This document shows positions 2,772 to 17,597 of a stretch of DNA of 20,537 bases, in pieces; positions within the stretch are counted from its first letter, which is position 1; each line of letters opens with the position of its first letter. Below the pieces are notes generated by a model that was not told where the DNA came from, made no database searches, and saw only the letters and a list, made by a program, of their open reading frames with translations. The translations under genes and the position numbers were made by a program. This DNA is from a virus: positions 1 through 20,537 of the IMG/VR virus record IMGVR_UViG_3300042673_000995; one strand, 5' to 3'.

Positions 2772-3235
2772 TATAATTTACGTTTAGCTCTTGTTTTCTT
2801 AACCGATTGAACTACTTCTTTAATATCTTCAATGATCTCTTTAATATCTTCTTTAATTCCAACTATTTTTTCCCAATTCTCAGGAACTTTTTCGAAAAAT
2901 TTAATTAAAGTAGGATTACTTTTTAAAGCAGATATACATTGTGAATCTGTTGAATGTTCAGTAATAGTATCTGCATTGAATGACATGATAACTGCTCCTT
3001 TTTTAACGTGAAATTGTTTTTCCATCTTTTCTATTATTTTGTTTGTAATGTTTGGTCTTTTTAATGCGAAAAATAAATCTTCTATACATTCACATTTTTT
3101 AGCCTTATTTAAACTGATTCCAAATAGTGTTATATTTAGTTTATTCGCTTCAATCCATTCTTCAGAAAGATGATTACCTCTCCATATGTTTTTGGTCTTT
3201 TCGTAACTTAATACTTTGTTAATTTGTTCTTGCAT
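2771..3235 (-). CDS. Conserved phage protein of unknown function, 154 aa
   Basis: I do not recognise a defined family. The protein appears to have three parts. The first is an N-terminal helical region (about 1-70, with GNHLSEEWIEANKLNITLFG and CECIEDLFFALKRP). The second is a small beta-rich segment around residues 76-95 (FHVKKGAVIMSF, ITEHSTDSQ). The last is a charged, lysine-rich C-terminal helix (IKEDIKEIIEDIKEVVQSVKK) ending in a basic tail that could bind nucleic acid or a partner. It lies between the tube-like gene and the portal. It is the first gene after a strong terminator, so it may depend on readthrough or an unseen promoter. A structural or assembly role is inferred from position only. 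Similar small proteins seem familiar from flavobacterial phages, from memory and not from a search. Confidence 0.7.
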   Translation of the reverse strand: MQEQINKVLSYEKTKNIWRGNHLSEEWIEANKLNITLFGISLNKAKKCECIEDLFFALKRPNITNKIIEKMEKQFHVKKGAVIMSFNADTITEHSTDSQCISALKSNPTLIKFFEKVPENWEKIVGIKEDIKEIIEDIKEVVQSVKKTRAKRKL

Positions 3236-3241
3236 ATTTAT

Positions 3242-3272
3242 AAAAAAAGGGCATCAAATAAATGATGCCCTT
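3242..3272 (-). terminator. Strong Rho-independent terminator after the tube-like gene
   Basis: On the minus strand the arms GGGCATCA (3270-3263) and TGATGCCC (3256-3249) form a perfect 8-bp stem with a 6-base loop. Seven T residues follow (3248-3242). Two extra A-U pairs can extend the base. It begins 24 bases after the stop of the 191-residue gene and lies before the next start at 3235. No comparable T-run follows on the plus strand, so it acts on minus-strand transcription. Confidence 0.9.
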
Positions 3273-3294
3273 AAAATTAACAATTATTTTTTAA

Positions 3295-3870
3295 TTAAAC
3301 TAAAATACTATCAACAACTGCTTTTGAAGTTGCATAATCTGTAATAAATAAAGAATTTGGTAAACGTGGTTCTTTATTATTGATAGTTGTAAAAGTAAAA
3401 TCAAATGCTCCTTGTGTATCTGCATTATTTGGATCACGTTCTAAAACTGACATTTCTAATCCAGTTGTTAAACCGTAAATTTCAAATGAAGCATTACCAC
3501 CAACTCCTTTAAAGTAGTTTTCTGTAATGACAACAAATCTACCATCTTTCATTGAGTTCAATTGTTCTTTAATTTCAGGAGAAATATCAAAACCTTTTAA
3601 CTGTACAGAATGGTCAAACATATTGTTGAATCCAACCTTAACCATCATTGCTTTAGGTGCAATTGAATTATTTTTACCATCAATTTGATAAGCAAATTTT
3701 CCAGCTAATAAAGTAATATCTTCAACTGTTGATGTATTTGTTCCATTGTAAACAATAGTTGAAATATCATCAAAATTAAATATAACTGCTCTATCTCTTG
3801 TACCACCTTGCATAGGTGTAGCACAACTTATTAAAATGTTTGAAGCAATTGCTCCACATACTACTGACAT
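3295..3870 (-). CDS. Probable major tail tube protein, 191 aa
   Basis: A beta-rich 191-residue protein directly after the capsid gene, flanked on both sides by hairpin terminators as expected for a gene needing its own high dosage. The sequence shows the pattern I associate with a small major structural protein of Bacteroidota phages: a cysteine-containing N-terminus (SVVCGAIASNILISCATP), then GGTRDRAVIFNFDDI, GKFAYQIDG, GRFVVITENYFKGVGGNASF, and finally LERDPNNADTQGAFDFTFTT. That last motif, placed before a C-terminal strand, is characteristic of the group. Tube subunits polymerise as stacked hexamers around the tape measure. The alternative is a capsid decoration protein, since it sits beside the capsid gene rather than beside the tape measure. 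The start at 3870 has no Shine-Dalgarno sequence, only an A/T-rich leader. Confidence 0.6.
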   Translation of the reverse strand: MSVVCGAIASNILISCATPMQGGTRDRAVIFNFDDISTIVYNGTNTSTVEDITLLAGKFAYQIDGKNNSIAPKAMMVKVGFNNMFDHSVQLKGFDISPEIKEQLNSMKDGRFVVITENYFKGVGGNASFEIYGLTTGLEMSVLERDPNNADTQGAFDFTFTTINNKEPRLPNSLFITDYATSKAVVDSILV

Positions 3871-3893
3871 ATTTATAAATTTTTAAAGTGAAT

Positions 3894-3917
3894 AAAAAGG
3901 GAGTTTTTTAAGCTCCC
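3894..3917 (-). terminator. Candidate Rho-independent terminator after the major capsid gene
   Basis: On the minus strand GGGAG (3917-3913) and CTCCC (3903-3899) form a 5-bp, GC-rich stem around a 9-base A-rich loop, followed by five T residues (3898-3894). It starts 9 bases after the capsid stop. The stem is short and an A·C mismatch blocks its extension, so termination may be partial, acting as an attenuator between the capsid and tube-like genes. Confidence 0.6.
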
Positions 3918-3925
3918 ATTTAATA

Positions 3926-5002
3926 TTAATATGCAACTTGAATTTCGTAATCCAAAACAACCTTAGCATCAATATTGAAAGCAAAATCAATAAAGTTTTT
4001 CTTAGATTTTTTATCGTTGAAAACATCCATTCCTGACATTGCAGTTACTTCTTCAGTACCAATTTGCAAGTTAGTAGGAGTTACTAAAATAGCTCTATGA
4101 GGTAAGTAATATTTAGTTCCATCTGAGTAATAAGAACGAATAATTCTATCCCATAAATTGAAAGAATAAACTTCAATACCACCAGATTTCAATAAAGTAA
4201 TACCATTTTCTAATCTTTCAGTTGTAAAAGCTACATTGTAAGCTAACAATTCTCTTTCATATTGATCTGCTACTGATTGAGTAACAACATAAACTAATCC
4301 AGCTTGTTCTCTTAGTCTGTAATCAGCACCAAAACGCATATTTTGTAGAGCATTTGAAACTACTTTATTTGTTGTATCAGTTGCTGTGAATGCTTGTAAT
4401 GAAAATGTAGATTGTCCATTTCTAGAAGCTAAATCTGTAGTTTTTCTTGTCGCATCTCCAGCTACAATAGCAAAGATTTGTTTCCAAAAACCATCAATTT
4501 TATTGAAATAAGCTAAATCTGTTCCATTAGTAATTACACCACCATCAACAACATTTTCTGCTGTAGTATCACCAAACCAAGCAATTCTATAGATAGCTTC
4601 TTGAATAGCATCTGTTACTAATTCTTCAACAAAGTTTAAGAAATCTGTTCCAGTTAAATCATACTTTTCAATTCCTTTTTTAGTACCATACAAAAAGAAA
4701 GTTTCTTTTAAGTCAGTCCAACAAGATTCAAATCTATCTGAAACAACTGCTGGATTCCAAAATTTCTCAGTATTTACAATTGCATTAGTTGCTGAAGATG
4801 GATCACAAGAACCAGTTCCTTTACCTACTAAACCACCTAATCTACCTAAGATTGCGATTTGTTTTTTTGCTACAATTCCATTAACTACTGAATGAAATTT
4901 TGTTAATTCTGGTTTAGAAAATGCACTTTCAAATACTGCTTCTGATACTGCTTTGATTTCTTCTCCATTAAATGTTAAATCTGTTACGTCTATTAAAGCC
5001 AT
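3926..5002 (-). CDS. Major capsid protein, HK97-like fold, 358 aa
   Basis: A 358-residue protein encoded immediately after the protease/scaffold gene, the usual position for the major capsid protein. It matches my recollection of capsid proteins from Bacteroidota siphophages. The N-terminal arm is followed by a Gly-rich segment (LGRLGGLVGKGTGSCDP) and an E-loop-like region (KFWNPAVVSDRFESCWTDL). Then come a long spine-type helix (residues ~120-143, including FLNFVEELVTDAIQEAIYRI) and P-domain strands near TRKTTDLASRNGQ and YERELLAYNVAF. The C-terminal half contains GGIEVYSFNLWDRIIRSYY. No separate delta-domain cleavage site can be pinpointed. The leader is A/T-rich without Shine-Dalgarno. A hairpin terminator follows the stop. 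It would assemble 415 or more copies per icosahedral head, depending on T number. Confidence 0.85.
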   Translation of the reverse strand: MALIDVTDLTFNGEEIKAVSEAVFESAFSKPELTKFHSVVNGIVAKKQIAILGRLGGLVGKGTGSCDPSSATNAIVNTEKFWNPAVVSDRFESCWTDLKETFFLYGTKKGIEKYDLTGTDFLNFVEELVTDAIQEAIYRIAWFGDTTAENVVDGGVITNGTDLAYFNKIDGFWKQIFAIVAGDATRKTTDLASRNGQSTFSLQAFTATDTTNKVVSNALQNMRFGADYRLREQAGLVYVVTQSVADQYERELLAYNVAFTTERLENGITLLKSGGIEVYSFNLWDRIIRSYYSDGTKYYLPHRAILVTPTNLQIGTEEVTAMSGMDVFNDKKSKKNFIDFAFNIDAKVVLDYEIQVAY

Positions 5003-5017
5003 GTTTACTATTATTTA

Positions 5018-5575
5018 TTATTTGTTTTTACTAATTAATTTTCTCTCTTGCATTTGTTCCTTAACTGTTTTCGGTGTAGCAACTTCACGAAATACAGTAG
5101 CTTGAACTGGTGGTGTGTAATTGCTCCCAACTTTTGCTAATTCTTCCATTTTAGCTACTACTGTTTCAGCTACTGCATTAGCTTTATCTAATTCTAATTT
5201 CAATGCTTCAATTTCAGCTTTTAAACTTTCATTTTCTGCTGTCAATGCATCAATTTCTTCTTGTGTAGGCATTGCAGAAAGTTCAACTTCCAATTCAATT
5301 TCTTGTTCTGGAGCTTCCATGTATTCAGAAACTAATCCATTAAGAATAACAATTGTTGCTCCTTCAGTAGTTACATAAGTTCCATCTGTTGGAACTGTTC
5401 CATCTTCTAATAAAACAGCATCACCAACCTGGATGTCTTCATAAGGTAGGTTTAAAACTCCCTTATCTGTTTCAACCATCATTGCTAACTCGTTTCTTTC
5501 AACTGTAGCAACTACTTCTTCACCTTTCAATATAGACATAGCTAATGCTACTCTTTCCATAAGTGGTTTTTTCAT
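5018..5575 (-). CDS. Possible nested scaffolding protein from an internal in-frame start, 185 aa
   Basis: Met193 of the protease gene lies exactly at the boundary between the ClpP domain and the scaffold-like region. The ~26 bases just upstream on the minus strand contain no G and are very A/T-rich, resembling real gene leaders in this window. Initiation there would yield a free 185-residue protein with only the beta-rich domain and coiled coil. This parallels lambda Nu3, made from an internal start in gene C. The sequence allows it but cannot show it: Met198 is a second option and the start may be unused. Confidence 0.4.
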   Translation of the reverse strand: MKKPLMERVALAMSILKGEEVVATVERNELAMMVETDKGVLNLPYEDIQVGDAVLLEDGTVPTDGTYVTTEGATIVILNGLVSEYMEAPEQEIELEVELSAMPTQEEIDALTAENESLKAEIEALKLELDKANAVAETVVAKMEELAKVGSNYTPPVQATVFREVATPKTVKEQMQERKLISKNK

Positions 5576-6151
5576 ATTTGTTTGTTTTTTATTATAAATT
5601 AGAGCGACAGCTCTCTGTTGCTGTTTTGGAACTATTGCAGAAGCAAAATTCAATTTTAAACATTGATCTACAGTTAATGAAGTTTCAATTTTCATTAAAC
5701 CACTTAATGCTTCTTTACTAACACCAGTTGCTTTAGCATAGTTGTTAATCATTTCGCTTTCTGTTTCCTTAATGTTTTTAGACATTTCTTCTAAAGCATT
5801 TGCATCTCCAGTAACATTCATTAAAAAAGGATTATGAATGATATATGCTGTACCTTCTTGAATAAATCTGTTATTTAATGGAACAGATAAATGAATTTCA
5901 GTAGCTATTGAAGCACAAAGATTTTCTGCTATTGTATTTACATTTCCTAATGATGAAAGAAATTGAGCTATTGAACGACCTACTTCAACGTAACCACCTT
6001 CACTATCAATATGTACATTAATTGTATCTACTTCACCAAGTCCTTGAACTTGTGAAACAACATCAATTAATTCAACTCCCATTTTCGTAATTATACCATT
6101 TTCATCGTATGAATTACCAATTTGACCTTTTATGTAGACATTCCCTATCAT
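5018..6151 (-). CDS. ClpP-type head maturation protease fused to a scaffold-like domain, 377 aa
   Basis: The N-terminal ~180 residues look like the ClpP/S49-like serine proteases that cleave scaffold and capsid precursors inside the procapsid. INVHIDSEGG (residues 44-53) is the oxyanion/substrate strand, the nucleophile is Ser81 in CASIAT and the base is His106 in YIIHNPF. Near residues 155-163, IETSLTVDQ occupies the third-residue region, with Glu156 where Asp is usual in ClpP; Glu is common in phage members. After a Gln-rich linker (~177-180), residues 193-285 form a beta-rich domain (VGDAVLLEDGTVPTDG). Residues ~295-340 form a coiled coil (EEIDALTAENESLKAEIEAL) typical of scaffolds. The fusion resembles lambda gpC/Nu3. 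Position just before the capsid gene supports the call. Confidence 0.85.
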   Translation of the reverse strand: MIGNVYIKGQIGNSYDENGIITKMGVELIDVVSQVQGLGEVDTINVHIDSEGGYVEVGRSIAQFLSSLGNVNTIAENLCASIATEIHLSVPLNNRFIQEGTAYIIHNPFLMNVTGDANALEEMSKNIKETESEMINNYAKATGVSKEALSGLMKIETSLTVDQCLKLNFASAIVPKQQQRAVALIYNKKQTNMKKPLMERVALAMSILKGEEVVATVERNELAMMVETDKGVLNLPYEDIQVGDAVLLEDGTVPTDGTYVTTEGATIVILNGLVSEYMEAPEQEIELEVELSAMPTQEEIDALTAENESLKAEIEALKLELDKANAVAETVVAKMEELAKVGSNYTPPVQATVFREVATPKTVKEQMQERKLISKNK

Positions 6152-6206
6152 ATTGTAAATTTAAGTTATTGTTTTTATGTTAATTTGACTTTAAAACGTC
6201 AAAAAA

Positions 6207-7898
6207 TTATACTAATATTTTAACGACTGAAAAATTTAAATCTGAAACTCTTATATCTGTTGATTGACTGTTTTTCACAAATAATTCAACATAATCATTT
6301 GTAACTAAATCAATTTGATATTGAGTACTTCCAGGATGCTCTTGATTACTTGTCGAAGTTCTAATTGTCATTTCTGAATTAGATAATATAGATCCATTTT
6401 TAGCTATTCCTATACTAATATTTTGATTAGATATACTAGAACGAACAGCAGTATTTACACTTACTAAAAAAGAAGTGTTAAAAGCTCCAGTATATGTTAA
6501 TCTATTATTAGTATGTGTGAATTTAGAATTATTTGAATCAGCAGTTGTAGTACCTAAAGCCTTTACCCATACATTAACATTAGGCAATCCAATAATTGTA
6601 TCAGTTGCATTATTAACCATGTAATAAAAACCTCTTGTTGTTGTATTTTGAATCCCTACACAATTAGTAAATAAAGTTTTATTTGATGTTTGATTAACTC
6701 CAGCAATATAAGTACCACCACCTGAGAAATTAACAGTATCTAAAATATATCTCTCATCTGAAATAGTTGCTGAGCTTGAAACATTTAGCGAAGTCTCGCC
6801 AGACAATGTAACAAAAGAACTATAAATAATCCTAAATCGTCTACTAACTGTTAATGTGCTTGCTAAAGTTATAGCAGTACCACCTGACGAAGTATCGAAA
6901 AGACAGTTACCAAATGCTATAGTTCCAATAGTACCATCGAATGTCAAGCCACTTGCATTCAAGAATGCGCTGTCAGTCATTACGAAATTTGAATAATCTT
7001 TAATAGTTCCAACTGTTGCACAATCTACAAAGTTAATACCGAACCAATCTAAGGCAGTAGTAACACCATCGCCATCTAAATTAAAAACTGTTCCATGTGT
7101 GAATGATATGTTTCTAATAGGTAATGAATAATTAGAAGTAATTAATGCAGTAGCTGAATTTAAACCAGTTGATTTTAAATAGCAATTTTCCGAACTAAAA
7201 CCTAGAATAACTGAGTTTTGACCAGCAACAATTCTATCACCTAATAGATCAACTATTGTAGTTACATAATAAGTTGCGTTATCCAATAAGGTAATTACAC
7301 CACCTACAGCAGTTGGAAAATCTAATTTGCTTGAAACAAATATAAATTCATTCGTTTTATTCTGGTAATTATTCCATTTACTAGCATTTTCAAATGTAGA
7401 AGGAGTTAAGTATTTATCAGTTAATGTTCCAGTATTTACCTCGCTTTGTGTAGCTGTTGTTGGTGCATCTATAAATTCCCAACTAGTTCCATTTGAATAA
7501 TACAGTCCATTTGCTTTGTATGTTCCTAATATTCTATAACCTTGTGTATTTGAAACCCAATAGAAATCATTTGATACTAATGTTGCATCTGGTAAACTTG
7601 CATAATTTGAAACAGTATTTATAACTGTTCCAGCCCCACTACCTCCTGAGGCTGGATTAAAACCCGTATTCTCAGCATACCAAAGTTCCCATGCAGAAAC
7701 ACTAGCATAAGGAGAACCATTTTCTTGCGTTAATTCACTAAATGTAACGTAATTTATACCTAAATCATCTGAATAGATACTATAAGTTTCATTTGATATA
7801 TTTGTTTTTGTGATCTTAACTTCATTTGCATGGTCTTGTTTAATATCTCCACTTGCATTCACTAAGTAAATGTAATTTCCTTTTTTGTAGATTTTCAT
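6207..7898 (-). CDS. Tail fibre / receptor-binding protein with beta-helix body, 563 aa
   Basis: Three regions are visible. Residues 1-75 are a small N-terminal domain (MKIYKKGNYIYLVNASGD and the following strands) that probably attaches to the virion. Residues ~85-190 are Ser/Gly/Thr-rich with fibre-like phrases (NTVSNYASLPDATLVSND, TGTLTDKYLTPSTF). Residues ~195-430 repeat short hydrophobic strands with N/D/G turns (VGGVITLLDNATYYV, RIVAGQNSVILGFS, GTIGTIAFGNCLFDTSSGG), a pattern of right-handed parallel beta-helices of pectin-lyase type. Residues ~450-563 look like a jelly-roll head (YTGAFNTSFLVSVNTA, YQIDLVTNDYVELFVKN). No depolymerase active-site motif is identified, so binding is a safer inference than enzymatic cleavage. 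Its ATG overlaps the stop of the helix-turn-helix gene as ATGA. Confidence 0.75.
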   Translation of the reverse strand: MKIYKKGNYIYLVNASGDIKQDHANEVKITKTNISNETYSIYSDDLGINYVTFSELTQENGSPYASVSAWELWYAENTGFNPASGGSGAGTVINTVSNYASLPDATLVSNDFYWVSNTQGYRILGTYKANGLYYSNGTSWEFIDAPTTATQSEVNTGTLTDKYLTPSTFENASKWNNYQNKTNEFIFVSSKLDFPTAVGGVITLLDNATYYVTTIVDLLGDRIVAGQNSVILGFSSENCYLKSTGLNSATALITSNYSLPIRNISFTHGTVFNLDGDGVTTALDWFGINFVDCATVGTIKDYSNFVMTDSAFLNASGLTFDGTIGTIAFGNCLFDTSSGGTAITLASTLTVSRRFRIIYSSFVTLSGETSLNVSSSATISDERYILDTVNFSGGGTYIAGVNQTSNKTLFTNCVGIQNTTTRGFYYMVNNATDTIIGLPNVNVWVKALGTTTADSNNSKFTHTNNRLTYTGAFNTSFLVSVNTAVRSSISNQNISIGIAKNGSILSNSEMTIRTSTSNQEHPGSTQYQIDLVTNDYVELFVKNSQSTDIRVSDLNFSVVKILV

Positions 7899-8122
7899 TG
7901 TTCAAATCGTTTTATTATTCTGTATACTATTCTTTCACTAACTCCAAAAACATCTGAAACATCCGTAATGGACTGAGTTTTTTTAACTCCATTTTCCATT
8001 TGAAATTGATATGCTTTGTAAATTTTAAACCAAGTTAATACGTTTACAGATATTAAACCTGAACGTAATAAGTCATGAAGTTCCCCACTATCATGCAATT
8101 TTTCTAGTAATTTTATAGACAT
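7895..8122 (-). CDS. Small helix-turn-helix protein, 75 aa
   Basis: A 75-residue protein located between the tape measure and fibre genes. Its C-terminal third (residues ~49-74, TQSITDVSDVFGVSERIVYR) has the spacing of a helix-turn-helix: helix, G-V-S turn, then a recognition helix ending in basic residues (IIKRF). The N-terminal part is helical (LLEKLHDSGELHDLLRSGL) and may dimerise. DNA binding, and therefore regulation or packaging of some kind, is inferred from the motif. It could control the fibre gene or late transcription, but no operator is evident. A structural role is a possible alternative, since small HTH-bearing proteins also occur among phage morphogenesis genes. Its start sits 12 bases after the tape measure stop. 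Confidence 0.65.
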   Translation of the reverse strand: MSIKLLEKLHDSGELHDLLRSGLISVNVLTWFKIYKAYQFQMENGVKKTQSITDVSDVFGVSERIVYRIIKRFEQ

Positions 8123-8134
8123 ATTACAAATGTA

Positions 8135-10924
8135 CTAAAAATTTGCTCTATTTTGAACACTTGCTAAATTACCTTGTGCATCATTTATATCTTGTACAAT
8201 TACAACTGGCTTCGGCATCAATTCAATCATTCTTAATAATTGATTTTGTTCATTTAATTGATTATCTAAACTATTTGATATTGAACTAGCAACTGCTCCA
8301 CCATTAGCAAATTTCAAAGCTCCACCTTTAGCCATTAAAGGTACTCCACCAGTAGATGTATTTAAATTAGATAATTGACTAATCAATGGAGTAGCACGTT
8401 TATTTAAGATAAAAAAACTTTCATCCTTTTCAACTTCTATTTGTGTACCATCTTCAAAATACCCTTTTGTTCCACCATTTGCATGACTATTACCACCAAA
8501 TAAACCCCCTTTAGCAAATTTTGGAGTAGGTTGTGAAGCTATTAAACCAACTTGAACAGCACCTAAAACACCAGCTAAAATAGATAATGGAACATTTGGT
8601 AAAGCTCCAGTAACACCTACAGCTGTATTCATAGTAGCTTTAATTATATTTGCTAACTTTTCTCTTTCAAATGCTTCACGTTTTAATTTACTTTCAGTTG
8701 CTTTAAATGTAGCATCTAATTCACTTTTTTTAGTTAGAAATTCAGCATTTGTAATTAAACCAGCATCTAATTGATCTTGTAAGTTTTTTTGATTTTCATC
8801 ATTTTTATTTTTTTCTGCTGTAAGTTCATTTGCTATTCTACTTTGTGTTATTTGTGAAAGGGCATCAGTTAATTGATTAGCACTATTTAAAGTTATTACA
8901 GCTGTTTTTTGTGCTTTCTCTTGTTCTTTTGTTAATGTATTTTCAACATCTGTTTCAGCTGTTTTTTCTTTATCTTTTAATTCCTCATTTTGAATCTTTT
9001 TAGTTTCTAAAGCAAGTTTTGAATTTATAGCTTCTGCTTCAACACCTACTAATTTATTTAATTCAATTTCTAATTTTGCATTTTCTTGAAGTACTTTAAT
9101 TTTTTCATTTTGATAGTCTAAAAATGCTTGTTTTTCAGAACTTGTACCTTTTGCTTTAAGTAGATTTAATTCTGCATTAATCAATCCAATCTCTTGCTTA
9201 GATTTACGTTCACTTTCAACTTTTGCTTTGTTTAAATCTTCTGTATCTTTTAATTGTTTATTTTCACGTTCTTTTTGTTTATTTTCAAATTCAATATTGA
9301 TTCTATCAATCTCTAATTTATTTTTACTTTTTAATTCAGCTAAAATAGTAGCATTTCCTTTTGCATCTTTTTGTTCACGTTTATAATTTTCTGCTTGTCT
9401 AGATATTGCATCATTATAAATCTCTAAATCTAATTGAGTTAATTTATTATTTTTTTGTTCTTGAATTTTTAATAATTCCTCAACATTTCCTTCTGCTGAA
9501 TCTTCTAAAAATTTATAATGAGCTTCAATAATTTTAGATTGGTTTTCATTTTTTAAATCTTCATTATCTAAAATTAAATCTTTAATCTTATAAGCAATTG
9601 CTAAACGATCTTCTTCAGCCTTTTTATTATCAGCTAATATTTTTTCATTTGCTATTTTATTAGCTTCACGAATAGCATTGTTATTTTCAATAATTAAATT
9701 TCTTTTTTTATCTTCATAAAGTTGATTTTCATTAAATAATTCAATATATGACTTTTCAGCATCTGCTTGTTTATCTTTCAAATCTTTTATTCTATCTTCA
9801 TCATTTGTTTTTTTAATGTCAGATGCTAATTTATTTGCTAATTTTTGAAATGCTTGTTGTTCTTTTATAGAATTTTCATTCGATTCTTTTAAATATTTTA
9901 ATTTTAATTTACCAACTTCTTCAGCACTTTTATTTTCAAGTTCTGCTCTCTTTAATTCTAATGATGTTGTTTTTTCAAGCCATTTTTGTTGCTCCTGAAT
10001 AGATTTTATATTGTTTTCAATAGATTTAGTATGTTTATCTTGTGCTTTTACTGCTTGTTCTGCTGAGTAATCACTCCACATTTTCAAAGCTCCAACAATA
10101 CCAACAATAACACCTACCATTAAGAACAAAGGATTTGCTAAAATAGCTTTACCAAGACTTAATAAAGCAGAACCCATATTTTTCAATCCACCTAAAACTT
10201 CTTTAAATGTCATTCCTTGAGAAATAACAGCCATTTGTTTCATTTTTTCAGAAACTCCAGCAAAATCTAAGTTCATTAGATCATCTTTTACAAGTCCTAA
10301 ATTATTAGATAATTTTTCAAATCCAGTACCACCACTAGAAGCCTTTACATTTTCATTAACTTCTTTTATTTTATCACCTAATTCTCCAGCTCGTTCACTT
10401 GCTTCTTGATATTCTTTTGATCCAGCATCTAATCCGACCATTAAAGATTTAAGGTCTTTTAATTCAGCTTTTAAACCTCTAATTCCTTTGTCATAATTAC
10501 CTACCTCTCTAACATGAACACCATAACCAGCTTCTGATTTTTTTAAACTTTCATTTAAATCATTAACTTCTTTATTTAATTGTCTACCACTCTCAGTATT
10601 TGCTATTTGTTCAGTAGTTAAATTTCTTAATGCAACCTTTCCAGCACTTAATAATTCACCTTGCTCTTTTAAAGATAAGTTTTGTTTATTACCTAACCTT
10701 TCATTTATTTCAATAGCCTTAGACGATTGATTTAATATTAAATTTTGAGCTTTTATTTCTGCTCCTAATTTAGCATAAGCTAAAGCACCTTCTTTAGTAT
10801 TCTTATCTAACTCACTTTGTCTTTTCTTTAAATCTAATAATTTTTCAGAAGCAGTTTCAGCATTCTTTTTTAAATCTCCAGTATCTAATTTGATAGATAA
10901 TAATATTGTTTTATCTTCGCTCAT
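8135..10924 (-). CDS. Tail tape measure protein, 929 aa
   Basis: The longest gene in the window. Residues 1-200 and ~285-740 are highly charged heptad-like coiled coils (for example KEQEKAQKT and long K/E/L runs). A hydrophobic segment at ~252-282 (LLSLGKAILANPLFLMVGVI) is followed by Trp, as in tape measures that insert into the host membrane. Another small-residue hydrophobic region lies near residues 760-800 (TAVGVTGALPNVPLSILAGV). The Gly-rich C-terminus (KFAKGGLFGGNSHANGG, ESFFILNKRATPLIS) is typical of Bacteroidota tape measures. Tape measures set tail length at about 0.15 nm per residue, so ~140 nm is expected. No lytic transglycosylase or peptidase motif is visible. The start overlaps the preceding gene by 4 bases. 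Confidence 0.92.
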   Translation of the reverse strand: MSEDKTILLSIKLDTGDLKKNAETASEKLLDLKKRQSELDKNTKEGALAYAKLGAEIKAQNLILNQSSKAIEINERLGNKQNLSLKEQGELLSAGKVALRNLTTEQIANTESGRQLNKEVNDLNESLKKSEAGYGVHVREVGNYDKGIRGLKAELKDLKSLMVGLDAGSKEYQEASERAGELGDKIKEVNENVKASSGGTGFEKLSNNLGLVKDDLMNLDFAGVSEKMKQMAVISQGMTFKEVLGGLKNMGSALLSLGKAILANPLFLMVGVIVGIVGALKMWSDYSAEQAVKAQDKHTKSIENNIKSIQEQQKWLEKTTSLELKRAELENKSAEEVGKLKLKYLKESNENSIKEQQAFQKLANKLASDIKKTNDEDRIKDLKDKQADAEKSYIELFNENQLYEDKKRNLIIENNNAIREANKIANEKILADNKKAEEDRLAIAYKIKDLILDNEDLKNENQSKIIEAHYKFLEDSAEGNVEELLKIQEQKNNKLTQLDLEIYNDAISRQAENYKREQKDAKGNATILAELKSKNKLEIDRINIEFENKQKERENKQLKDTEDLNKAKVESERKSKQEIGLINAELNLLKAKGTSSEKQAFLDYQNEKIKVLQENAKLEIELNKLVGVEAEAINSKLALETKKIQNEELKDKEKTAETDVENTLTKEQEKAQKTAVITLNSANQLTDALSQITQSRIANELTAEKNKNDENQKNLQDQLDAGLITNAEFLTKKSELDATFKATESKLKREAFEREKLANIIKATMNTAVGVTGALPNVPLSILAGVLGAVQVGLIASQPTPKFAKGGLFGGNSHANGGTKGYFEDGTQIEVEKDESFFILNKRATPLISQLSNLNTSTGGVPLMAKGGALKFANGGAVASSISNSLDNQLNEQNQLLRMIELMPKPVVIVQDINDAQGNLASVQNRANF

Positions 10925-12921
10925 ATCTCTATTATTTCACAACTTGTTAAATTGCCTTTGTAATTTTCTATTTTGTTAATGTAAAAGTAACCACTTAAAT
11001 TTAAATCTGGTCTTTGTATTTGAATAGGTATTGAAAAATCTAAATCTGAAATATCATTAACATTTAATTTAGCTATTATTTTAATAACTTTTGGAGATTC
11101 AACAATTGATTGAATAGTTGCATAGTATTTAGGAATTAACTTTTCAAATCCTATAACTTCACAAAACGGTATATTAGTAGTTTTTGCTACTGTAGTTGAT
11201 CCATTAGTATAGTTAACATCAAATTCAGTATTTTGTACCTTTAAATAAAGCAATCTCCAATCACTTTTTAACCATTCATTTGTTGAATCTTTTAAACCAT
11301 CTATTCTAGGAATAATATAACCATTATAACGATTAAAAATCATTGTAGTAGGATGAACCAATTTAACAACTGTTCTTTCATCTTCTAAATTATCACTACT
11401 TAAATTAAAATAGTAATCATTATTAGTATCTGCATTTGATGTTTTATCAGTATCTTCTTTAAATAAAAAATTGTTTTTCTTTGCATAGTTTCCAAATCTA
11501 AAGCTCATTGAATTAGAATTTTGAATCTTATTACTCCAATCTTTTGCAATTGTTTTATTTAGCTTTAAATCTTCAAAACTATTAAATGATATTGTTTTAG
11601 TATAATTATTTGTTTGTATAATAATAGCTCTTAAATTTAAAATATCTTTTAAAACATCCTTTATTTTCATGGTGAATAAATTAACGAAATTTAAATCACT
11701 TCCAAAAGCTATTTTAGGACTTGGAGTAAATTGATAAAATCTAGGAAAAACATTTGTTGTTGATGATCCTGGAGAAAAGAAACCAATCGGACTACCAGTA
11801 TTTTTAAAAACTTCATATTGATATAATAAAAATTGAGTATTAACATTTTTTTGTTGAATTAAACAATCAATTTGAACTCTATACTTTCTACCAGATAAAA
11901 AAGTTAATTCTGGACTTTCAATATCAATTGTAAATACCTCGCTAATTAATGTATTTTTATCAAATGAAAATGTTTTTACAGTTTCACTATACATTGTGTA
12001 ATTCAAATCATCAATAAAGCTAACCTTAACAAAACAATCTTTTGTATTTTCATTATTCTTTACTTCAGTAGCTCTCCATTTAATTTGATAAGTAGCTGAG
12101 AAATTTAATTTACCTATCTTATTTATAGTAGGTCTATAATCTCCAAAAGCAAATTCTGGAACATTATTTTCATTTCTAAATGTTGGAAAATAAGTTACTG
12201 TACTAACTGAAGAACCAGAACTAATTAATGTACCACCAGTTGTTCCAATTGTTGAAAGTGGTTGACTTGTTTTAATTGCATCACTTGAAGGAATAGTAAA
12301 ATTATTAGGAGTTAAAACCATGTTTAAATGATCTAAACTATTTAAATAATTACCACTAAAAATATAACCAATTTTATTACTTAATCTAGTGAATAAATTA
12401 GGCATTTTAGCAGTTGGAATCATTTGCCTAACATCAATTGTATTTGTACTGAAAAATTCAACATCCTTTCTCCAATTCAACAAAGGATAAACCCAATAAT
12501 TAGACGAATTAAAGTAGCTATTATCTAAGTTCCAAATATGAATACTATCATTTGCATATAATTCACCAACTGTTAAATCTCCTATTGATTCTAATAAGTC
12601 AGTATTACCACTATAAACATTTACATAAAAAAAATTATTATCTACATTTGAAATCTCTGCTATTCCTTCACTAATTATTTCAATACCATTTTGCTTATAT
12701 GTTGCTTTTAACTTATTATAAGGTAAAATACTTGAAGATGTTTGCAAATGAGCCCATTCAAATATCTCTTTATTATTCTTTGAAATAGGTAGTTTAAAAG
12801 TATTTGTAAAATTACCTTGTCGATTTTGTAATTCACCAATATTATTAGCACATAAAGTAACTCCAATATTAGTTGAATCACTTAAATCTACAGTTCTATT
12901 GTTAATTATAAGCTCGTTCAT
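10921..12921 (-). CDS. Tail tip or baseplate structural protein, 666 aa
   Basis: A large beta-rich protein encoded directly before the tape measure with an ATGA overlap. The N-terminus (MNELIINNRTVDLSDSTNIG, then NRQGNFTNTFKLPISKNN) has the pattern of a recurrent tail/baseplate protein of Bacteroidota phages. It continues with strand-rich stretches such as LKATYKQNGIEIISEGIAEI and NVYSGNTDLLESIGDLTVGE. The middle (residues ~230-370) and C-terminal region (~560-660, with DLDFSIPIQIQRPDLNLSGY) also look like beta domains of hub or distal-tail proteins. No enzymatic motif is seen. Such proteins usually form the tip or hub contacting the last tube ring, normally encoded after the tape measure, whereas here they precede it. 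The exact role (distal tail, hub, other) is not resolvable. Confidence 0.6.
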   Translation of the reverse strand: MNELIINNRTVDLSDSTNIGVTLCANNIGELQNRQGNFTNTFKLPISKNNKEIFEWAHLQTSSSILPYNKLKATYKQNGIEIISEGIAEISNVDNNFFYVNVYSGNTDLLESIGDLTVGELYANDSIHIWNLDNSYFNSSNYWVYPLLNWRKDVEFFSTNTIDVRQMIPTAKMPNLFTRLSNKIGYIFSGNYLNSLDHLNMVLTPNNFTIPSSDAIKTSQPLSTIGTTGGTLISSGSSVSTVTYFPTFRNENNVPEFAFGDYRPTINKIGKLNFSATYQIKWRATEVKNNENTKDCFVKVSFIDDLNYTMYSETVKTFSFDKNTLISEVFTIDIESPELTFLSGRKYRVQIDCLIQQKNVNTQFLLYQYEVFKNTGSPIGFFSPGSSTTNVFPRFYQFTPSPKIAFGSDLNFVNLFTMKIKDVLKDILNLRAIIIQTNNYTKTISFNSFEDLKLNKTIAKDWSNKIQNSNSMSFRFGNYAKKNNFLFKEDTDKTSNADTNNDYYFNLSSDNLEDERTVVKLVHPTTMIFNRYNGYIIPRIDGLKDSTNEWLKSDWRLLYLKVQNTEFDVNYTNGSTTVAKTTNIPFCEVIGFEKLIPKYYATIQSIVESPKVIKIIAKLNVNDISDLDFSIPIQIQRPDLNLSGYFYINKIENYKGNLTSCEIIEI

Positions 12922-13361
12922 TAACCTTGAATATTAATGTAAGGTAATTCTAGTGTAATTTGAATAGTAGCTTTTAAATCATTCGTATCATACAATTTAA
13001 AAGAACCTACTTGTGGATGAACTGTATTCCATTTAATTGGATTTTCAGAAACTAACATTTCAACACAAGGTGAATAAAGAATTGTTTTAATACCTTCAAT
13101 ATCTTCAATATCTACTGTAGCATTTATAATTAATAATGGAGTAGCATTTTTTGATATATCATTTATTTGACCTCTTGAATTTGCTAAATCTGAAATATAA
13201 GTTTCAAATGATCCATTGTTTTGAGTTACTAAACCTTTTGTTTGTACTTTATCAAATAACCAATGTTCACGACCACCATAAGTATTTAACCAACTTAAAA
13301 AAACTGGATTTGTTTTACATTCCCTATCTATTTTAATTGTTTTAATTTCTGTTACTCTCAT
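12921..13361 (-). CDS. Phage structural protein, probable tail/baseplate component, 146 aa
   Basis: A 146-residue protein that shares one base with the next gene (TAATG) and 4 bases with the preceding one. The N-terminal half contains the distinctive phrase VFLSWLNTYGGREHWLFDK, which I associate with a small structural protein found beside tail genes in Bacteroidota phages. Most of the rest is strand-rich (PLLIINATVDIEDIEGI, SFKLYDTNDLKATIQITL). The C-terminus ends in ELPYINIQG. The tight linkage with the 353- and 666-residue structural genes suggests they act in one complex, perhaps the tail tip. No known family or activity is claimed. Confidence 0.6.
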   Translation of the reverse strand: MRVTEIKTIKIDRECKTNPVFLSWLNTYGGREHWLFDKVQTKGLVTQNNGSFETYISDLANSRGQINDISKNATPLLIINATVDIEDIEGIKTILYSPCVEMLVSENPIKWNTVHPQVGSFKLYDTNDLKATIQITLELPYINIQG

Positions 13362-14419
13362 TCGTATAAATACTTAATAGGTTTAAAATAATTATCTCTA
13401 GGACCATAAAAATCACTAAAATCAGTTGCATATAAACCATCATCCCATCTAATTGGAATAGTTCCAGTATTATCTGCTTCTAGCCAAATGTCAACCGTTT
13501 TAATATTGCTTGTATAGCCTTGTTTTAACATAAGTCTATTAGCATATAAACGATCATTCATGTTTAAATTATCTGTTGTTGTAGATACTATAGTTCCGTT
13601 AATATCTTTTGTTTGTTCCTTTCTGATAACTTTATAATTTAACATATTATCAGAATAAATAAAATTTAAACTAAATGGATAACCAACAAAATAAGTAGGT
13701 CTGTTAAATACACTTTGAAATTTAGCCTTATCTGTTCTAGAATTATCAAAAGTAGGTACATAACTTCCCATGTTATATCCATACTTATCTTGAATTTGAT
13801 TAGATGAATTAGTATAAAATAAAACATTAGCATCATTTAATGCTGTGTAATTTCCAGCTACTCCATTTATAACTTCTCTAATCTGAATGTTAAATTTAGA
13901 ACCTTCACTCAATTGAAACTTATTTATTGAATTATAAAGAAAGTTATTTTGATTAATTGTTTTAGTTGAAAGTAATTCTTGTACAGAAACTTTAGCTACA
14001 CCAAAATTATCAGTTTTATTTTTAATTGATCCTATTGTTTCATAAGTATAACCATTAATATAAGATACCTTAGTTTCAATATAATGACTATTATAAGCAT
14101 CTACAAATATAAATGAACCAGGTACTCCAGTTAATAAAGAATAATCATAAGCAAATTTTAAATGATTAGTTGAAATACTTTTAATTGTTAAAACCTTTGA
14201 ACTAGCACCTTGAATATAGTATACTTTTTGACCAACTTTTACTGAAGATGGAATAGTAATATTTAATTTAAAATGTATTTCTGTTCCACCAATATTATAT
14301 TTTTGTAAAACATTTGCATCTATTCTTTGAATCTCAAATGTAATAGGTTGATGAACTGGAAACCATTTTGATTTTTGTCCATTTATCAATATACTAGGAT
14401 TCTTTTTAATTGAAATCAT
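13358..14419 (-). CDS. Tail structural protein of unknown specific role, 353 aa
   Basis: A 353-residue beta-rich protein joined by ATGA overlaps to its neighbours on both sides. Visible segments include PVHQPITFEIQRIDAN and FKLNITIPSSVKVGQKVYYI. Others are FNIQIREVINGVAGNYTALN, FQSVFNRPTYFVGYPFSL and IKTVDIWLEADNTGTIPIRW. The repeated short strands with N/D/G turns suggest immunoglobulin-like or jelly-roll domains of virion surface or baseplate proteins. It has no signal peptide, membrane segment or recognisable catalytic residues. I do not recognise the family beyond a feeling of recurrence in Bacteroidota phage tail clusters. Its place between the neck protein and the tail-tip proteins suggests a distal tail or baseplate role. 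Confidence 0.55.
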   Translation of the reverse strand: MISIKKNPSILINGQKSKWFPVHQPITFEIQRIDANVLQKYNIGGTEIHFKLNITIPSSVKVGQKVYYIQGASSKVLTIKSISTNHLKFAYDYSLLTGVPGSFIFVDAYNSHYIETKVSYINGYTYETIGSIKNKTDNFGVAKVSVQELLSTKTINQNNFLYNSINKFQLSEGSKFNIQIREVINGVAGNYTALNDANVLFYTNSSNQIQDKYGYNMGSYVPTFDNSRTDKAKFQSVFNRPTYFVGYPFSLNFIYSDNMLNYKVIRKEQTKDINGTIVSTTTDNLNMNDRLYANRLMLKQGYTSNIKTVDIWLEADNTGTIPIRWDDGLYATDFSDFYGPRDNYFKPIKYLYE

Positions 14420-14874
14420 TCTTTAATAATATTAGTTATTTGAACATAATACCTTTGACCTATCAAATTTACTAAATTATCTATTCTATTATCTGTCAAA
14501 ATAGGTTCAAAAATATTTTGTTTACCACCTTGTTGGTATAATTTAGTACCATTTAAATGAATAGATTTTGACATCATCCAACTTAATTGCTCACTTGTTG
14601 GAATATTTCCTTTTTCATTTGCTTTTCCTGATATACCTTTCTTTTTTATCCAACTTAAAATTGCTTGTTGTAAAGTTGGATTTCCAGTTTTTGCTCCAGG
14701 AGAAGTTGGTTTTCTACCTTTCCATAATACCGAAATAAATGGACTTGCATAAATAGTCAAACTATCCTCAGTATTTTCAGCATACATTGTAGAACCTAAA
14801 GATCCACTAACTTTTTTTAGTTCTGGGATAATTGTATTTGTAAATTGGTCGAATATTTCTTTATTTGTTGACAT
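14416..14874 (-). CDS. Probable neck / tail-completion protein, HK97 gp10-like, 152 aa
   Basis: A 152-residue protein with an amphipathic N-terminal helix (KEIFDQFTNTIIPELKKVSG). A strand (DSLTIYASPFISVLWKG) leads into the phrase GRKPTSPGA, then PTLQQAILSWIKKKGIS and a Gly-containing stretch ending in LYQQGG. The GRKPTSPGA...LQQAILSWIKKKGI arrangement is the type seen in HK97 gp10-like neck or tail-completion proteins of Bacteroidota phages. These proteins sit between the connector and the first tube ring. This is a pattern-level call, not a confirmed family hit. It overlaps the preceding micro-ORF by 14 bases and the following gene by 4. Confidence 0.5.
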   Translation of the reverse strand: MSTNKEIFDQFTNTIIPELKKVSGSLGSTMYAENTEDSLTIYASPFISVLWKGRKPTSPGAKTGNPTLQQAILSWIKKKGISGKANEKGNIPTSEQLSWMMSKSIHLNGTKLYQQGGKQNIFEPILTDNRIDNLVNLIGQRYYVQITNIIKE

Positions 14875-14947
14875 AATAAATTACTGAGCAAATTAATAAC
14901 CAACTCACTATTGAAATTATCCAAAGATATTTTTTATATTTTAACAT
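14861..14947 (-). CDS. Tiny single-pass membrane protein, 28 aa
   Basis: An ATG at 14947 opens a 28-codon frame ending in TAA at 14861. The product starts with a basic MLKYKKY segment, then a hydrophobic stretch of ~18 residues (LWIISIVSWLLICSVIYYV) and a final NK. It occupies the otherwise empty 66-base gap between two genes. It overlaps the upstream stop by 7 bases and the downstream start by 14, in the tiling style of this operon. A positive N-terminus followed by a transmembrane helix fits a membrane micro-protein. Function is unknown; lysis-related or superinfection-related roles are possible but unsupported. Chance is a real alternative for an ORF this short. Confidence 0.5.
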   Translation of the reverse strand: MLKYKKYLWIISIVSWLLICSVIYYVNK

Positions 14948-15381
14948 ACTCCATCAGAATTAATCATTCGTAAACTAAAAGGCATCATTACACCACTCAT
15001 ATTTGTATCAAATAAATTTTGGACTTGAACGCACGTTTCAACACTTAAATCTCTTACATTATCTACATCATTTTCAAGGGCAATCTGGAACTCTCTTTGA
15101 GCATTCTCAGCCTTTACAAATATTTCTTCTTGCTGTATATCGTTATCATCCAATTCACTTTTAAATAGAAATAAAGCTACACAAATATAAGTTCTTTGAA
15201 AAGCTCCAGTACTCATTATTTTAGGAGTATATTTCATAGGCATATCCAAATAAACACATGGTAATAATTGTTCATCAGCCATAAGATTTTGAAACTGTGT
15301 TTCTGAATGTAAAAAAGTATAACTTTCATTATTTGAACTCATTAAAGCTACTTTATCACTTACTAATTGTTTAATTGTCAT
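14941..15381 (-). CDS. Probable tail terminator / tail completion protein, 146 aa
   Basis: A 146-residue protein with alternating helices and strands: an N-terminal helical part (TIKQLVSDKVALMSSNNESY), then LLPCVYLDMPMKYTPKIMST and TYICVALFLFKSELDDND. A charged helix around EEIFVKAENAQREFQIALEN and a C-terminal strand pair ending in SGVMMPFSLRMIN complete it. This size and helix/strand order fit the tail terminator (gpU-like) fold that caps the tube and joins it to the neck. Its neighbours (possible chaperone before, neck protein after) support this. No signature residue confirms it, so another tail-completion protein is equally possible. The gene overlaps the preceding one by 4 bases. Confidence 0.45.
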   Translation of the reverse strand: MTIKQLVSDKVALMSSNNESYTFLHSETQFQNLMADEQLLPCVYLDMPMKYTPKIMSTGAFQRTYICVALFLFKSELDDNDIQQEEIFVKAENAQREFQIALENDVDNVRDLSVETCVQVQNLFDTNMSGVMMPFSLRMINSDGVC

Positions 15382-16028
15382 TTGTCTTGTATTATTTTAC
15401 TGTAGTTACTTTCAAATTTACTACTTATATTTTGTTTTAATAGTATTAAAAATATTAAATTATAAGGAAGTTGTTCAACTTCTTCATGTGTATAGTTATA
15501 TTTTTCAGCGATCATATCAATAGTATTGAAATCACCTAATTCATTAAAGCTATCAATACCAGCCATTTTTTGTTCTATTGTGATCTCAGATTTTAATCGT
15601 TCATTATCTCGTTCAATTATTTTAATTAATCTATTCAATAGATAGCAATATGCTTGAAATACGACATCACAATTTAAATTTAAACAATCTACTCCAGAAT
15701 AAATTTTAATCACTTCATATACGTTTGAAATATCTCTACAAGCTAATATTTTCTTTTCATAACTTTCCTGACCTAAATCAAATGGAAGTTCAATATCATT
15801 AATAAAATTACTTTCTTCAAATTTAGTTGGATCATCCTGGAGAAATTCTAAATATGGAGTAATTACCTCAATATCTAACATCAATATTTCTACCTCATTT
15901 AATCCAGTTAATATTTGAATAGCTTGAATTTCATTTGAACTTTGTAATTTTAAATAGTCGCTAAATTTAATATCACTCCATGAAGTAGGTAAATTGAAAT
16001 CCTTTATTTGAGTTTTAAATTTTATCAT
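15378..16028 (-). CDS. Possible tail assembly chaperone, 216 aa
   Basis: A 216-residue, mostly helical soluble protein starting inside the end of the large terminase gene (ATGA overlap). The N-terminus (FNLPTSWSDIKFSDYLKLQS, then QAIQILTGLNEVEI) resembles phage proteins with a 'W-x-D-I-x-x-x-x-Y' opening followed by a small-number helix, which I have seen associated with tail assembly chaperones or related virion proteins. The rest is acidic and helical (for example ELGDFNTIDMIAEKYNYTHE). Chaperones coat the tape measure before tube polymerisation, and a location before the tail block is consistent. No programmed frameshift is evident. The alternative is an uncharacterised virion protein; certainty is low. 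Confidence 0.4.
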   Translation of the reverse strand: MIKFKTQIKDFNLPTSWSDIKFSDYLKLQSSNEIQAIQILTGLNEVEILMLDIEVITPYLEFLQDDPTKFEESNFINDIELPFDLGQESYEKKILACRDISNVYEVIKIYSGVDCLNLNCDVVFQAYCYLLNRLIKIIERDNERLKSEITIEQKMAGIDSFNELGDFNTIDMIAEKYNYTHEEVEQLPYNLIFLILLKQNISSKFESNYSKIIQDK

Positions 16029-17329
16029 AATAATCTACTTCTAGGTGCTTTTGCTTTTGGTTTCAACTCAAAATAATATCTCATCATTATACTATCCCAA
16101 TGGTCAGGAGAACGACCTATATTAGCTTTTATAACATCTTTAGATATAATACCTAAACGAGTATCTTTATCAATTTCTTTTTGTTTAATTTGCTCCATTT
16201 CTTCACTAACAAGATCACGAATATGAGTATTATTTGAAATCTCACCACATTCTCTATTCTGTATTTTTTTAGCCATTAAAATGGAACATTGACTTTTTAA
16301 ATTTTCATAGTTTTCCCCATTTAAAGCTCTACTATTATTTACAAAACCTTCACATCTTAACATATCTACAAGTCCACCACCAACTCCATCTTCATCTGCT
16401 ATTGTTTGACTATTTGGTATATTGTATTTAGCTTGTAATTTCCTAGCTTCATCAAATGCTTCTACTATTGTATTTTTAGCAAATATAATTACATCAATAC
16501 ACTTCCATTCATTCCATACTCTATAAACGGTTGTATCCTTTCCTTTACGAGCTACATCAATTGTTAAATAATATTTACCTTCATTATTTAAATGTACTGG
16601 ATTAAAATAATCAATAATAGCATCCATATCAATTAATGTAGATGGATCATCATCATATTCCCAATTTCCATAATAAAGTCTTTGTTTTGCATTATTATCT
16701 AATTGCAATAATGATTTTAAATAAGAAGGATGTAAATGTGGATTATCTTGTGGTAATGCTTGAATGAATTTCCTATAATTTTTTAATGTTCCATTCTTAG
16801 ATGGTTGATAAAATTCTTTATATGTCCAATTTTTAGCTGGATTTAAAGTACCTAACATTTTAGGGATTAAATTATATTCTGTTAATTTATATCTTATCCT
16901 TGATTTAACTATTTGCCAGGCTTTGTATACAACTTGGTTACATTCATCAATAAATGCTCCAGTAATCTCCAATGAACCTAAACTATCATAATTAGGATCG
17001 GAAGGATATAAGAATAAATCTTTTAAAATGATCTCACTACCATTTTCAAAGTAAATAACATTTGATTGAGCATTATAATTAAATTCATCACCTATCTCTA
17101 ATTTACTTGCTAATTCAAAGAAAGTATTTAAAGTAGTTTCTTTTAATGTCTTCAGTTTTGCTCTACCCATTAACCATCTTGTTCCTGGATAATTTTGACA
17201 CATTGAAATCAACCAAAGGCATCCAAATGCAGATTTACCACCACCAGCAGCTCCACCATAAAGAACTTCTTCTGTAATTTTATCTTGTAAATAAAATGTT
17301 GCGTGTTCTTGCTTAATCAGTAGTTTCAT
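16025..17329 (-). CDS. terL: Terminase large subunit, 434 aa
   Basis: The packaging motor: an ATPase plus a nuclease that cuts concatemeric DNA. Walker A is GGAAGGGKS at residues 25-33 (Lys32), Walker B is GAFIDE at 124-129 (Asp128, Glu129), and the coupling motif is GTLNP at 160-164. The RNase H-like nuclease has acidic residues at Asp258 (TIDVARKGKDTT), Asp312/Glu313/Asp314 (ADEDGVGGG) and Asp409/Asp412 (SPDHWDS), so all expected sites are present and the protein appears intact. The length is typical for a phage terminase. The start overlaps the small subunit by 17 bases, which also supports co-translation. Transcription proceeds into the tail genes. Confidence 0.95.
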   Translation of the reverse strand: MKLLIKQEHATFYLQDKITEEVLYGGAAGGGKSAFGCLWLISMCQNYPGTRWLMGRAKLKTLKETTLNTFFELASKLEIGDEFNYNAQSNVIYFENGSEIILKDLFLYPSDPNYDSLGSLEITGAFIDECNQVVYKAWQIVKSRIRYKLTEYNLIPKMLGTLNPAKNWTYKEFYQPSKNGTLKNYRKFIQALPQDNPHLHPSYLKSLLQLDNNAKQRLYYGNWEYDDDPSTLIDMDAIIDYFNPVHLNNEGKYYLTIDVARKGKDTTVYRVWNEWKCIDVIIFAKNTIVEAFDEARKLQAKYNIPNSQTIADEDGVGGGLVDMLRCEGFVNNSRALNGENYENLKSQCSILMAKKIQNRECGEISNNTHIRDLVSEEMEQIKQKEIDKDTRLGIISKDVIKANIGRSPDHWDSIMMRYYFELKPKAKAPRSRLL

Positions 17330-17597
17330 TTGGATTTATTCCACTTCCTAATTGAATAACATTTTGTATTTTTTCACCCATTGATGTAATATCTGTTTGT
17401 TGTTTAGGTTTACCAAACATATATTCAAAAAACATTTTAATTGCCCAATCTTTTCCACTATCAATAGCTTCAGAAAGTTTTATAAATGCTTGTTCTTCTA
17501 ATGGCGAAAGTTTTTGTATTAAGTTTTGTTCTTCAGCCTTTGAAGGTCTACCACCATTATTACCTTTAGTACCTTTGTTTTTTACTCTATTATCCAT
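17313..17597 (-). CDS. terS: Probable terminase small subunit, 94 aa
   Basis: A short, basic-to-acidic protein directly before the large terminase, with a 17-base overlap. The N-terminus is Lys/Gly/Asn-rich and leads into GGRPSKAEEQNLIQKLSP, a common opening of Bacteroidota phage terminase small subunits, which recognise packaging sites in DNA. The following helices (EEQAFIKLSEAIDSGKDW and IKMFFEYMFGKPKQQ) and the short tail TSMGEKIQNV fit the same type. It is small for the family (usually ~100-200 aa), but the position, the GRPSK motif and the fused overlap are convincing. A 6-bp inverted repeat lies just upstream at 17604-17625. Confidence 0.8.
   Translation of the reverse strand: MDNRVKNKGTKGNNGGRPSKAEEQNLIQKLSPLEEQAFIKLSEAIDSGKDWAIKMFFEYMFGKPKQQTDITSMGEKIQNVIQLGSGINPNETTD

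What the first reader, a model, noticed from the sequence alone, without database searches (positions are those of the whole stretch)
14861..14947. 28-residue membrane micro-protein tiled into a 66-base gap
The only sizeable gap in the tail block is exactly filled by a frame encoding K-rich residues plus one hydrophobic helix, with a small overlap at each end. Conventional gene calling would skip it. A conserved transmembrane peptide between tail completion genes would be an unexpected location for a lysis, exclusion or membrane-insertion function.
Basis: seen in the sequence. Interest (0 to 1): 0.6.

Follow-up and report, generated by a model that had tools for sequence, protein, structure and literature searches.

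The report
Conserved 28-residue phage membrane micro-protein
A tiny gene that standard gene finders would probably miss, coding for a 28-residue membrane peptide wedged between two tail genes of an uncultured phage (probably of Bacteroidota), is real and conserved in more than 20 related phages, but it is absent from more distant relatives, so it is probably an optional accessory rather than part of the tail.

Summary
Confirmed: window 14861-14947(-) encodes MLKYKKYLWIISIVSWLLICSVIYYVNK, bridging the only real gap (66 nt) in the tail block and overlapping its neighbours by 7 and 14 nt. In one genome this is close to chance (about 6%). Conservation decides it. The ORF lies at the same place in 23 other IMG/VR contigs (16 distinct proteins), always open, with frame-preserving indels only, pN/pS 0.47 against about 1.0 in neutral simulations, and no charged or polar residue in the helix of any of 19 distinct gap sequences. 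It is a real gene for a basic-N-terminus, single-pass membrane peptide. Its upstream neighbour has a lambda-gpU-like tail-terminator fold. The gene is clade-specific: the slot is empty in the sister clade and in the collinear isolate Bacteroides phage BS-TP3. Some relatives have a 68-74-aa protein with a C-terminal membrane helix there, or an unrelated 95-aa ORF. So it looks accessory, not structural. A primary lysis role is unlikely, because a relative carries its lysis genes after the tail-fibre gene. Best guess (about 30%): a late inner-membrane accessory protein that hinders secondary DNA entry, as HK97 gp15 does. Function untested. New member of a known kind.

The parts
14861..14947 (-). 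micro-gene: 28-aa single-pass membrane peptide MLKYKKYLWIISIVSWLLICSVIYYVNK
   Evidence: ORF; same frame at the same junction in 23 other contigs, 0 stops, pN/pS 0.47
14941..15381 (-). upstream neighbour, 146 aa, lambda gpU-like tail terminator; its stop overlaps the micro-gene start by 7 nt
   Evidence: AlphaFold pLDDT 84; Foldseek to T5 p142 (8bcu, E 3e-5) and lambda gpU (3fz2, E 6e-5)
14416..14874 (-). downstream neighbour, 152 aa, neck/tail-completion protein (tentative); its start lies 14 nt inside the micro-gene
   Evidence: homologous to Bacteroides phage BS-TP3 gp57 (hhalign prob 93%); AlphaFold model poor; no direct match to HK97 gp10
14875..14940 (-). 66-nt core used for the selection tests (outside both flanking genes)
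14882..14926 (-). hydrophobic helix, about residues 8-22 and up to residue 26, with invariant L8, W9, I11, S15, W16, I19
   Evidence: hydropathy; 12-sequence alignment

Best explanation
It is a genuine, translated gene for a 28-30-residue single-pass membrane protein, chained by overlapping ends into the late tail operon and occupying an accessory slot between the tail-terminator gene and the next neck/tail gene. Shown: conserved frame, purifying selection, frame-preserving indels, strict absence of polar residues in the helix, clade-restricted distribution and variable slot content. Inferred: translation coupled to the tail-terminator gene during late expression; insertion in the inner membrane with the lysine-rich N-terminus inside (positive-inside rule); action through a helix face carrying the invariant L8/W9/I11/S15/W16/I19 on itself or on a membrane partner. 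The most likely job is an accessory one on the host membrane, with hindering genome entry by other phages (as HK97 gp15 does) the single best guess at about 30%. The confidence below is for the real-accessory-membrane-peptide statement, not for the exclusion step.
For: Same ORF in the same gap in 23 other contigs from many metagenomes; 16 distinct proteins. Other forward frames are stopped in all 20 sequences and this one in none; pN/pS 0.47 here against 1.19 and 1.86 in the other forward frames. Neutral simulation: mean ratio 1.0-1.1, P <= 0.003, and no replicate kept all frames open. 0 of 342 helix residues charged/polar/Pro against a minimum of 4 (mean 30) in 200 simulations that forbade stops. 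Indels are +3, +6 and +3 nt only. The core diverges more slowly (pS 0.30, pN 0.14) than synonymous sites of the flanks (0.55). Accessory nature: absent in the sister clade (L045, L046, L048, L050), 68-aa form in L047, 74-aa form in L061/L064-L067, 95-aa unrelated ORF in L023/L025, absent in collinear isolate BS-TP3. HK97 gp15 precedent: 62-aa moron in the tail block, predicted inner-membrane exclusion protein (PMC10883804).
Against: No expression or localisation data. pN/pS is several times that of the neighbours (0.06-0.14), so constraint is only moderate. pS is also lower than in the flanks, so some nucleotide-level constraint is possible. The exclusion step has no direct support: no sequence match to gp15, no integrase in nine relatives and no GTDB prophage relative found, so the phages may not be temperate. 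Clustering of invariant residues on one helix face is only suggestive (P 0.04 and 0.08).
Confidence: 0.75

Rival explanations
1. Translational-coupling spacer: the frame is kept open only so that ribosomes travel from the terminator gene to the next gene; the peptide itself does nothing.
For: Start and stop overlap both neighbours by a few nt in every member of the clade, like the 4-nt overlaps elsewhere in the operon.
Against: A spacer needs no particular residues, yet pN/pS is 0.47 and no helix residue ever turns polar, against neutral simulations including ones that forbid stops. Sister phages and BS-TP3 join the two genes directly without it.
Confidence: 0.12
2. Lysis protein or lysis regulator (holin-, pinholin- or antiholin-like) placed outside the lysis cassette.
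For: Small single-TM basic peptide encoded in the late operon.
Against: A near-complete relative carrying the micro-gene (G001) has endolysin, a two-TM small protein and a TM-anchored protein together after the tail-fibre gene. Sister phages lack the micro-gene. The assignment of the two-TM protein as holin is by position only, and the lysis genes of the other carriers were not resolved.
Confidence: 0.12
3. TM-only remnant or minimal form of the 68-74-aa protein with a C-terminal membrane helix found in the same slot of related phages, sharing its function (compatible with the best explanation; it adds an origin).
For: Same slot, C-terminal helix and similar ends (..VIYYVNK / ..VVYYFTK). The L047 and L061 long forms are clearly homologous to each other (score 66-78 vs shuffles about 24+-4.6).
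Against: Short-to-long similarity is inconsistent across pairs (P from <0.001 to 0.40 against shuffles) and weak by profile (hhalign prob 7.6%). The VNK end of the short form overlaps the downstream gene's start codons, so end similarity may be coincidental.
Confidence: 0.3
4. Conserved RNA element or chance ORF; no peptide function.
For: The 66-nt core varies less than neighbouring synonymous sites. One gap alone would give such an ORF by chance about 6% of the time.
Against: Variation follows codon position in this frame only (14 variable third positions vs 6 second positions). Consensus fold is -2.5 kcal/mol with no compensatory pair; no Rfam match.
Confidence: 0.04

Closest known systems
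Escherichia phage HK97 gp15 (moron superinfection-exclusion protein, 62 aa)
   Same: Small single-TM protein encoded inside the tail-gene block (between tail chaperone and tape measure); a tryptophan-containing helix; predicted inner-membrane protein (PMC10883804).
   Different: No significant similarity (hhalign prob 3%); gp15 has a charged C-terminal domain and a putative terminator of its own; here there is no terminator and the ends overlap the neighbours.
68-74-aa proteins with a C-terminal TM helix in the same slot of related uncultured phages (L047; L061, L064-L067)
   Same: Same position between the same two tail genes; membrane helix at the C-terminus.
   Different: They have a 40-50-residue charged helical N-terminal part; homology of the helices is not established.
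Phage small-gene families in general (reviewed in PMC11323111, citing Fremin et al. 2022)
   Same: Very short, unannotated, unknown function.
   Different: Located by synteny here; no match in Pfam above cut-off, PHROGs, NCBIfam, PADLOC or solved structures, nor in 50,697 phage records.

Membership tests
HK97 gp15-type superinfection-exclusion moron | sequence homology to gp15 | tested here: not met
   hhalign prob 3.2%
HK97 gp15-type superinfection-exclusion moron | small membrane protein gene inside the tail block, present in some relatives and absent from others | tested here: met
HK97 gp15-type superinfection-exclusion moron | own promoter and terminator (moron) | tested here: not met
   no terminator-like site, promoter-like sites at shuffle level (the scan does not cover Bacteroidota promoters); ends overlap both neighbours
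HK97 gp15-type superinfection-exclusion moron | blocks genome entry of superinfecting phage | not testable with these tools
   needs expression and infection assay
holin / lysis cassette | encoded next to the endolysin | tested here: not met
   in G001 endolysin and a two-TM small protein lie after the tail-fibre gene, far from the micro-gene
68-74-aa C-terminal-TM slot family | homology to L061/L047 long forms | tested here: inconclusive
   shuffle P <0.001-0.40; hhalign prob 7.6%
protein-coding gene | frame under purifying selection | tested here: met
protein-coding gene | translated product detected | not testable with these tools
   needs ribosome profiling or peptidomics

The most novel reading that the evidence does not exclude
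The slot next to the tail-terminator gene hosts a family of late membrane proteins that act on genome entry or on the membrane side of tail function, and the 28-aa form is its minimal helix-only version, sufficient for activity through a conserved W/S face.
Probability: 0.15. Interest if true: 0.6.

Novelty: new member of a known kind. Interest (0 to 1): 0.35.

Why it matters
It is a clean case of a sub-90-nt phage gene, likely to be missed by standard gene callers, that is verified by synteny and codon-level selection, with its relatives and alternative slot contents mapped. It gives a compact, testable candidate for a membrane-acting phage peptide. More broadly, it shows that residual gaps in tightly packed tail operons are worth checking for genes.

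Tried and rejected
Profile libraries gave nothing significant for the peptide (Pfam, PHROGs, NCBIfam, PADLOC, PDB sequences). No match in phage GenBank records. No GTDB genome encodes a relative of the downstream protein, so no host or prophage context was obtained. No copy of the micro-gene was found elsewhere in 11 other related records (that search had no positive control). The structure of the downstream protein came out at pLDDT 55, too weak for naming. Chance ORF and RNA element were considered and rejected. Homology of the short and long slot proteins was tested and left open. The conserved helix face is only suggestive. TM retention in all 19 sequences does not discriminate by itself, since the null simulation also reached 19. 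The pN/pS value of 0.62 for the 456-nt group of the downstream gene was discarded because compensating indels misalign those sequences.

Full report
OBSERVATION. The 28-codon frame at 14861-14947(-) exists as described. It spans the 66-nt space between the genes at 14941-15381(-) and 14416-14874(-), overlapping them by 7 and 14 nt. All other junctions in the tail block are between -4 and +12 nt. As a single-genome observation it is not remarkable: 13 ATG micro-ORFs with a TM-like stretch exist in this AT-rich window, and resampling the gap yields a bridging ORF in 22% and a bridging ORF with a TM stretch in 5.8% of trials.

CONSERVATION. Relatives were collected from IMG/VR through both flanking proteins. 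Twenty-three other contigs carry the frame at the same junction: 22 with an exactly 66-nt gap and one (L024) with 75 nt. One of the 23 (L001) is identical to the window over this stretch. The frame is never interrupted, while the two other forward frames carry stops in all 20 sequences compared. Indels are +3 nt (L009 group) and +6/+3 nt (L024), all frame-preserving. pN/pS is 0.47 in this frame and 1.19 and 1.86 in the other two. Simulating neutral evolution on the tree of the core gives a mean of 1.0-1.1; the observed value was reached in 0 of 300 (equal rates) and 0.3% (gamma 0.5) of replicates, and no replicate kept all 19 frames open. With stops forbidden, 200 simulations gave 4 or more charged/polar/proline residues in the helix (mean 30); the observed number is 0 of 342. 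The core diverges more slowly (pS 0.30, pN 0.14) than flanking synonymous sites (0.55), though the peptide is less constrained than its neighbours (pN/pS 0.06-0.14). Consensus: MLKxKKYLWIITIVSWLLIGSIIYYVNK, with L8, W9, I11, S15, W16 and I19 invariant in the helix; these lie on one helix face, but only at P 0.04-0.08.

CONTEXT. The upstream protein models well (pLDDT 84) and matches tail terminators of T5 and lambda (E 3e-5 to 6e-5). The downstream protein models poorly. Bacteroides phage BS-TP3 is collinear (TerS, TerL, gp55, gp56, gp57, gp58, gp59, gp60, gp61), and its gp56 and gp57 are homologous to the two flanking proteins (hhalign 95% and 93%). gp57 carries an annotation mentioning HK97; direct comparison with HK97 gp10 gave nothing, so the name neck/tail-completion protein is tentative.

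DISTRIBUTION. On a tree of both flanking proteins the micro-gene marks one clade. The sister clade joins the two genes directly (L045, L046, L048, L050), except L047, which has a 68-aa ORF with a C-terminal TM helix. A more distant clade (L061, L064-L067) has a 74-aa protein with a C-terminal TM helix; L047 and this form are homologous. L023/L025 have an unrelated 95-aa ORF. BS-TP3 has nothing there: gp56 and gp57 overlap. The slot is therefore accessory, and the micro-protein is not a required tail component. Whether the short form derives from the long form is unresolved.

FUNCTION. Lysis is disfavoured: in G001, a near-complete relative that carries the micro-gene, an M15 endolysin (phrog_17001), a 62-aa two-TM protein and a 202-aa TM-anchored protein lie together after the tail-fibre gene; calling the two-TM protein a holin rests on position. 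A pure translational-coupling role does not explain amino-acid-level selection. An RNA element is not supported. The most plausible role is an accessory membrane peptide made late from the tail operon. The best-studied analogue by location is HK97 gp15, a 62-aa moron between tail chaperone and tape measure, cited as a predicted inner-membrane protein that blocks DNA injection (PMC10883804). Membership in that family is not claimed: there is no sequence homology, no terminator here, and the function is untested. No integrase was found in nine relatives and no GTDB genome gave a relative, which weakens a lysogen-type exclusion story; exclusion late in lytic infection is still possible. I put superinfection exclusion at about 30%, another host-membrane function at about 30%, lysis-related at about 12%, coupling only at about 12%, and the rest unknown.

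HOST. The closest terminases of isolates are those of Cellulophaga phage phi10:1 (70%) and Flavobacterium phage 11b (60%), pointing to Bacteroidota; this is an inference.

VERDICT. Observation confirmed and biologically real; the interpretation as a conserved membrane peptide is right within one phage clade, the location has a known parallel, and the function is undetermined.

Noticed in passing
L061:3780-4004 (+); L064:574-798; L065:3780-4004; L047 gap ORF (68 aa): A 68-74-aa protein family (N-terminal RQQKR..LN motif, charged helices, C-terminal TM helix) occupies the same slot in related phages; no family match, and no match to the L065-type sequence in phage GenBank records.
   Followed up: partly
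L023 and L025, gap between the two tail genes: A 95-99-aa ORF without a TM helix, starting with a basic amphipathic stretch, fills the slot in these distant relatives.
   Followed up: no
window 7895-8122 (-): 75-aa helix-turn-helix-like protein directly after the tape-measure gene; its counterpart in Bacteroides phage BS-TP3 is annotated as a Mor-domain protein. A regulator-like gene inside the tail block is odd.
   Followed up: partly
window 16025-17329 vs L088:7055-8224 and L062:2142-3368: Close relatives carry a different large-terminase protein at the same position, suggesting replacement of the packaging module while the adjacent tail genes stay conserved.
   Followed up: no
window 1434-17597: Gene order is terminase, tail neck, tape measure, then ClpP-like protease, capsid and portal-like protein: head genes lie after tail genes.
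   Followed up: no
L057, L059, L060, L062, L063: The gpU-like tail-terminator gene was not found at this position; the downstream gene follows the 220-aa gene directly.
   Followed up: no
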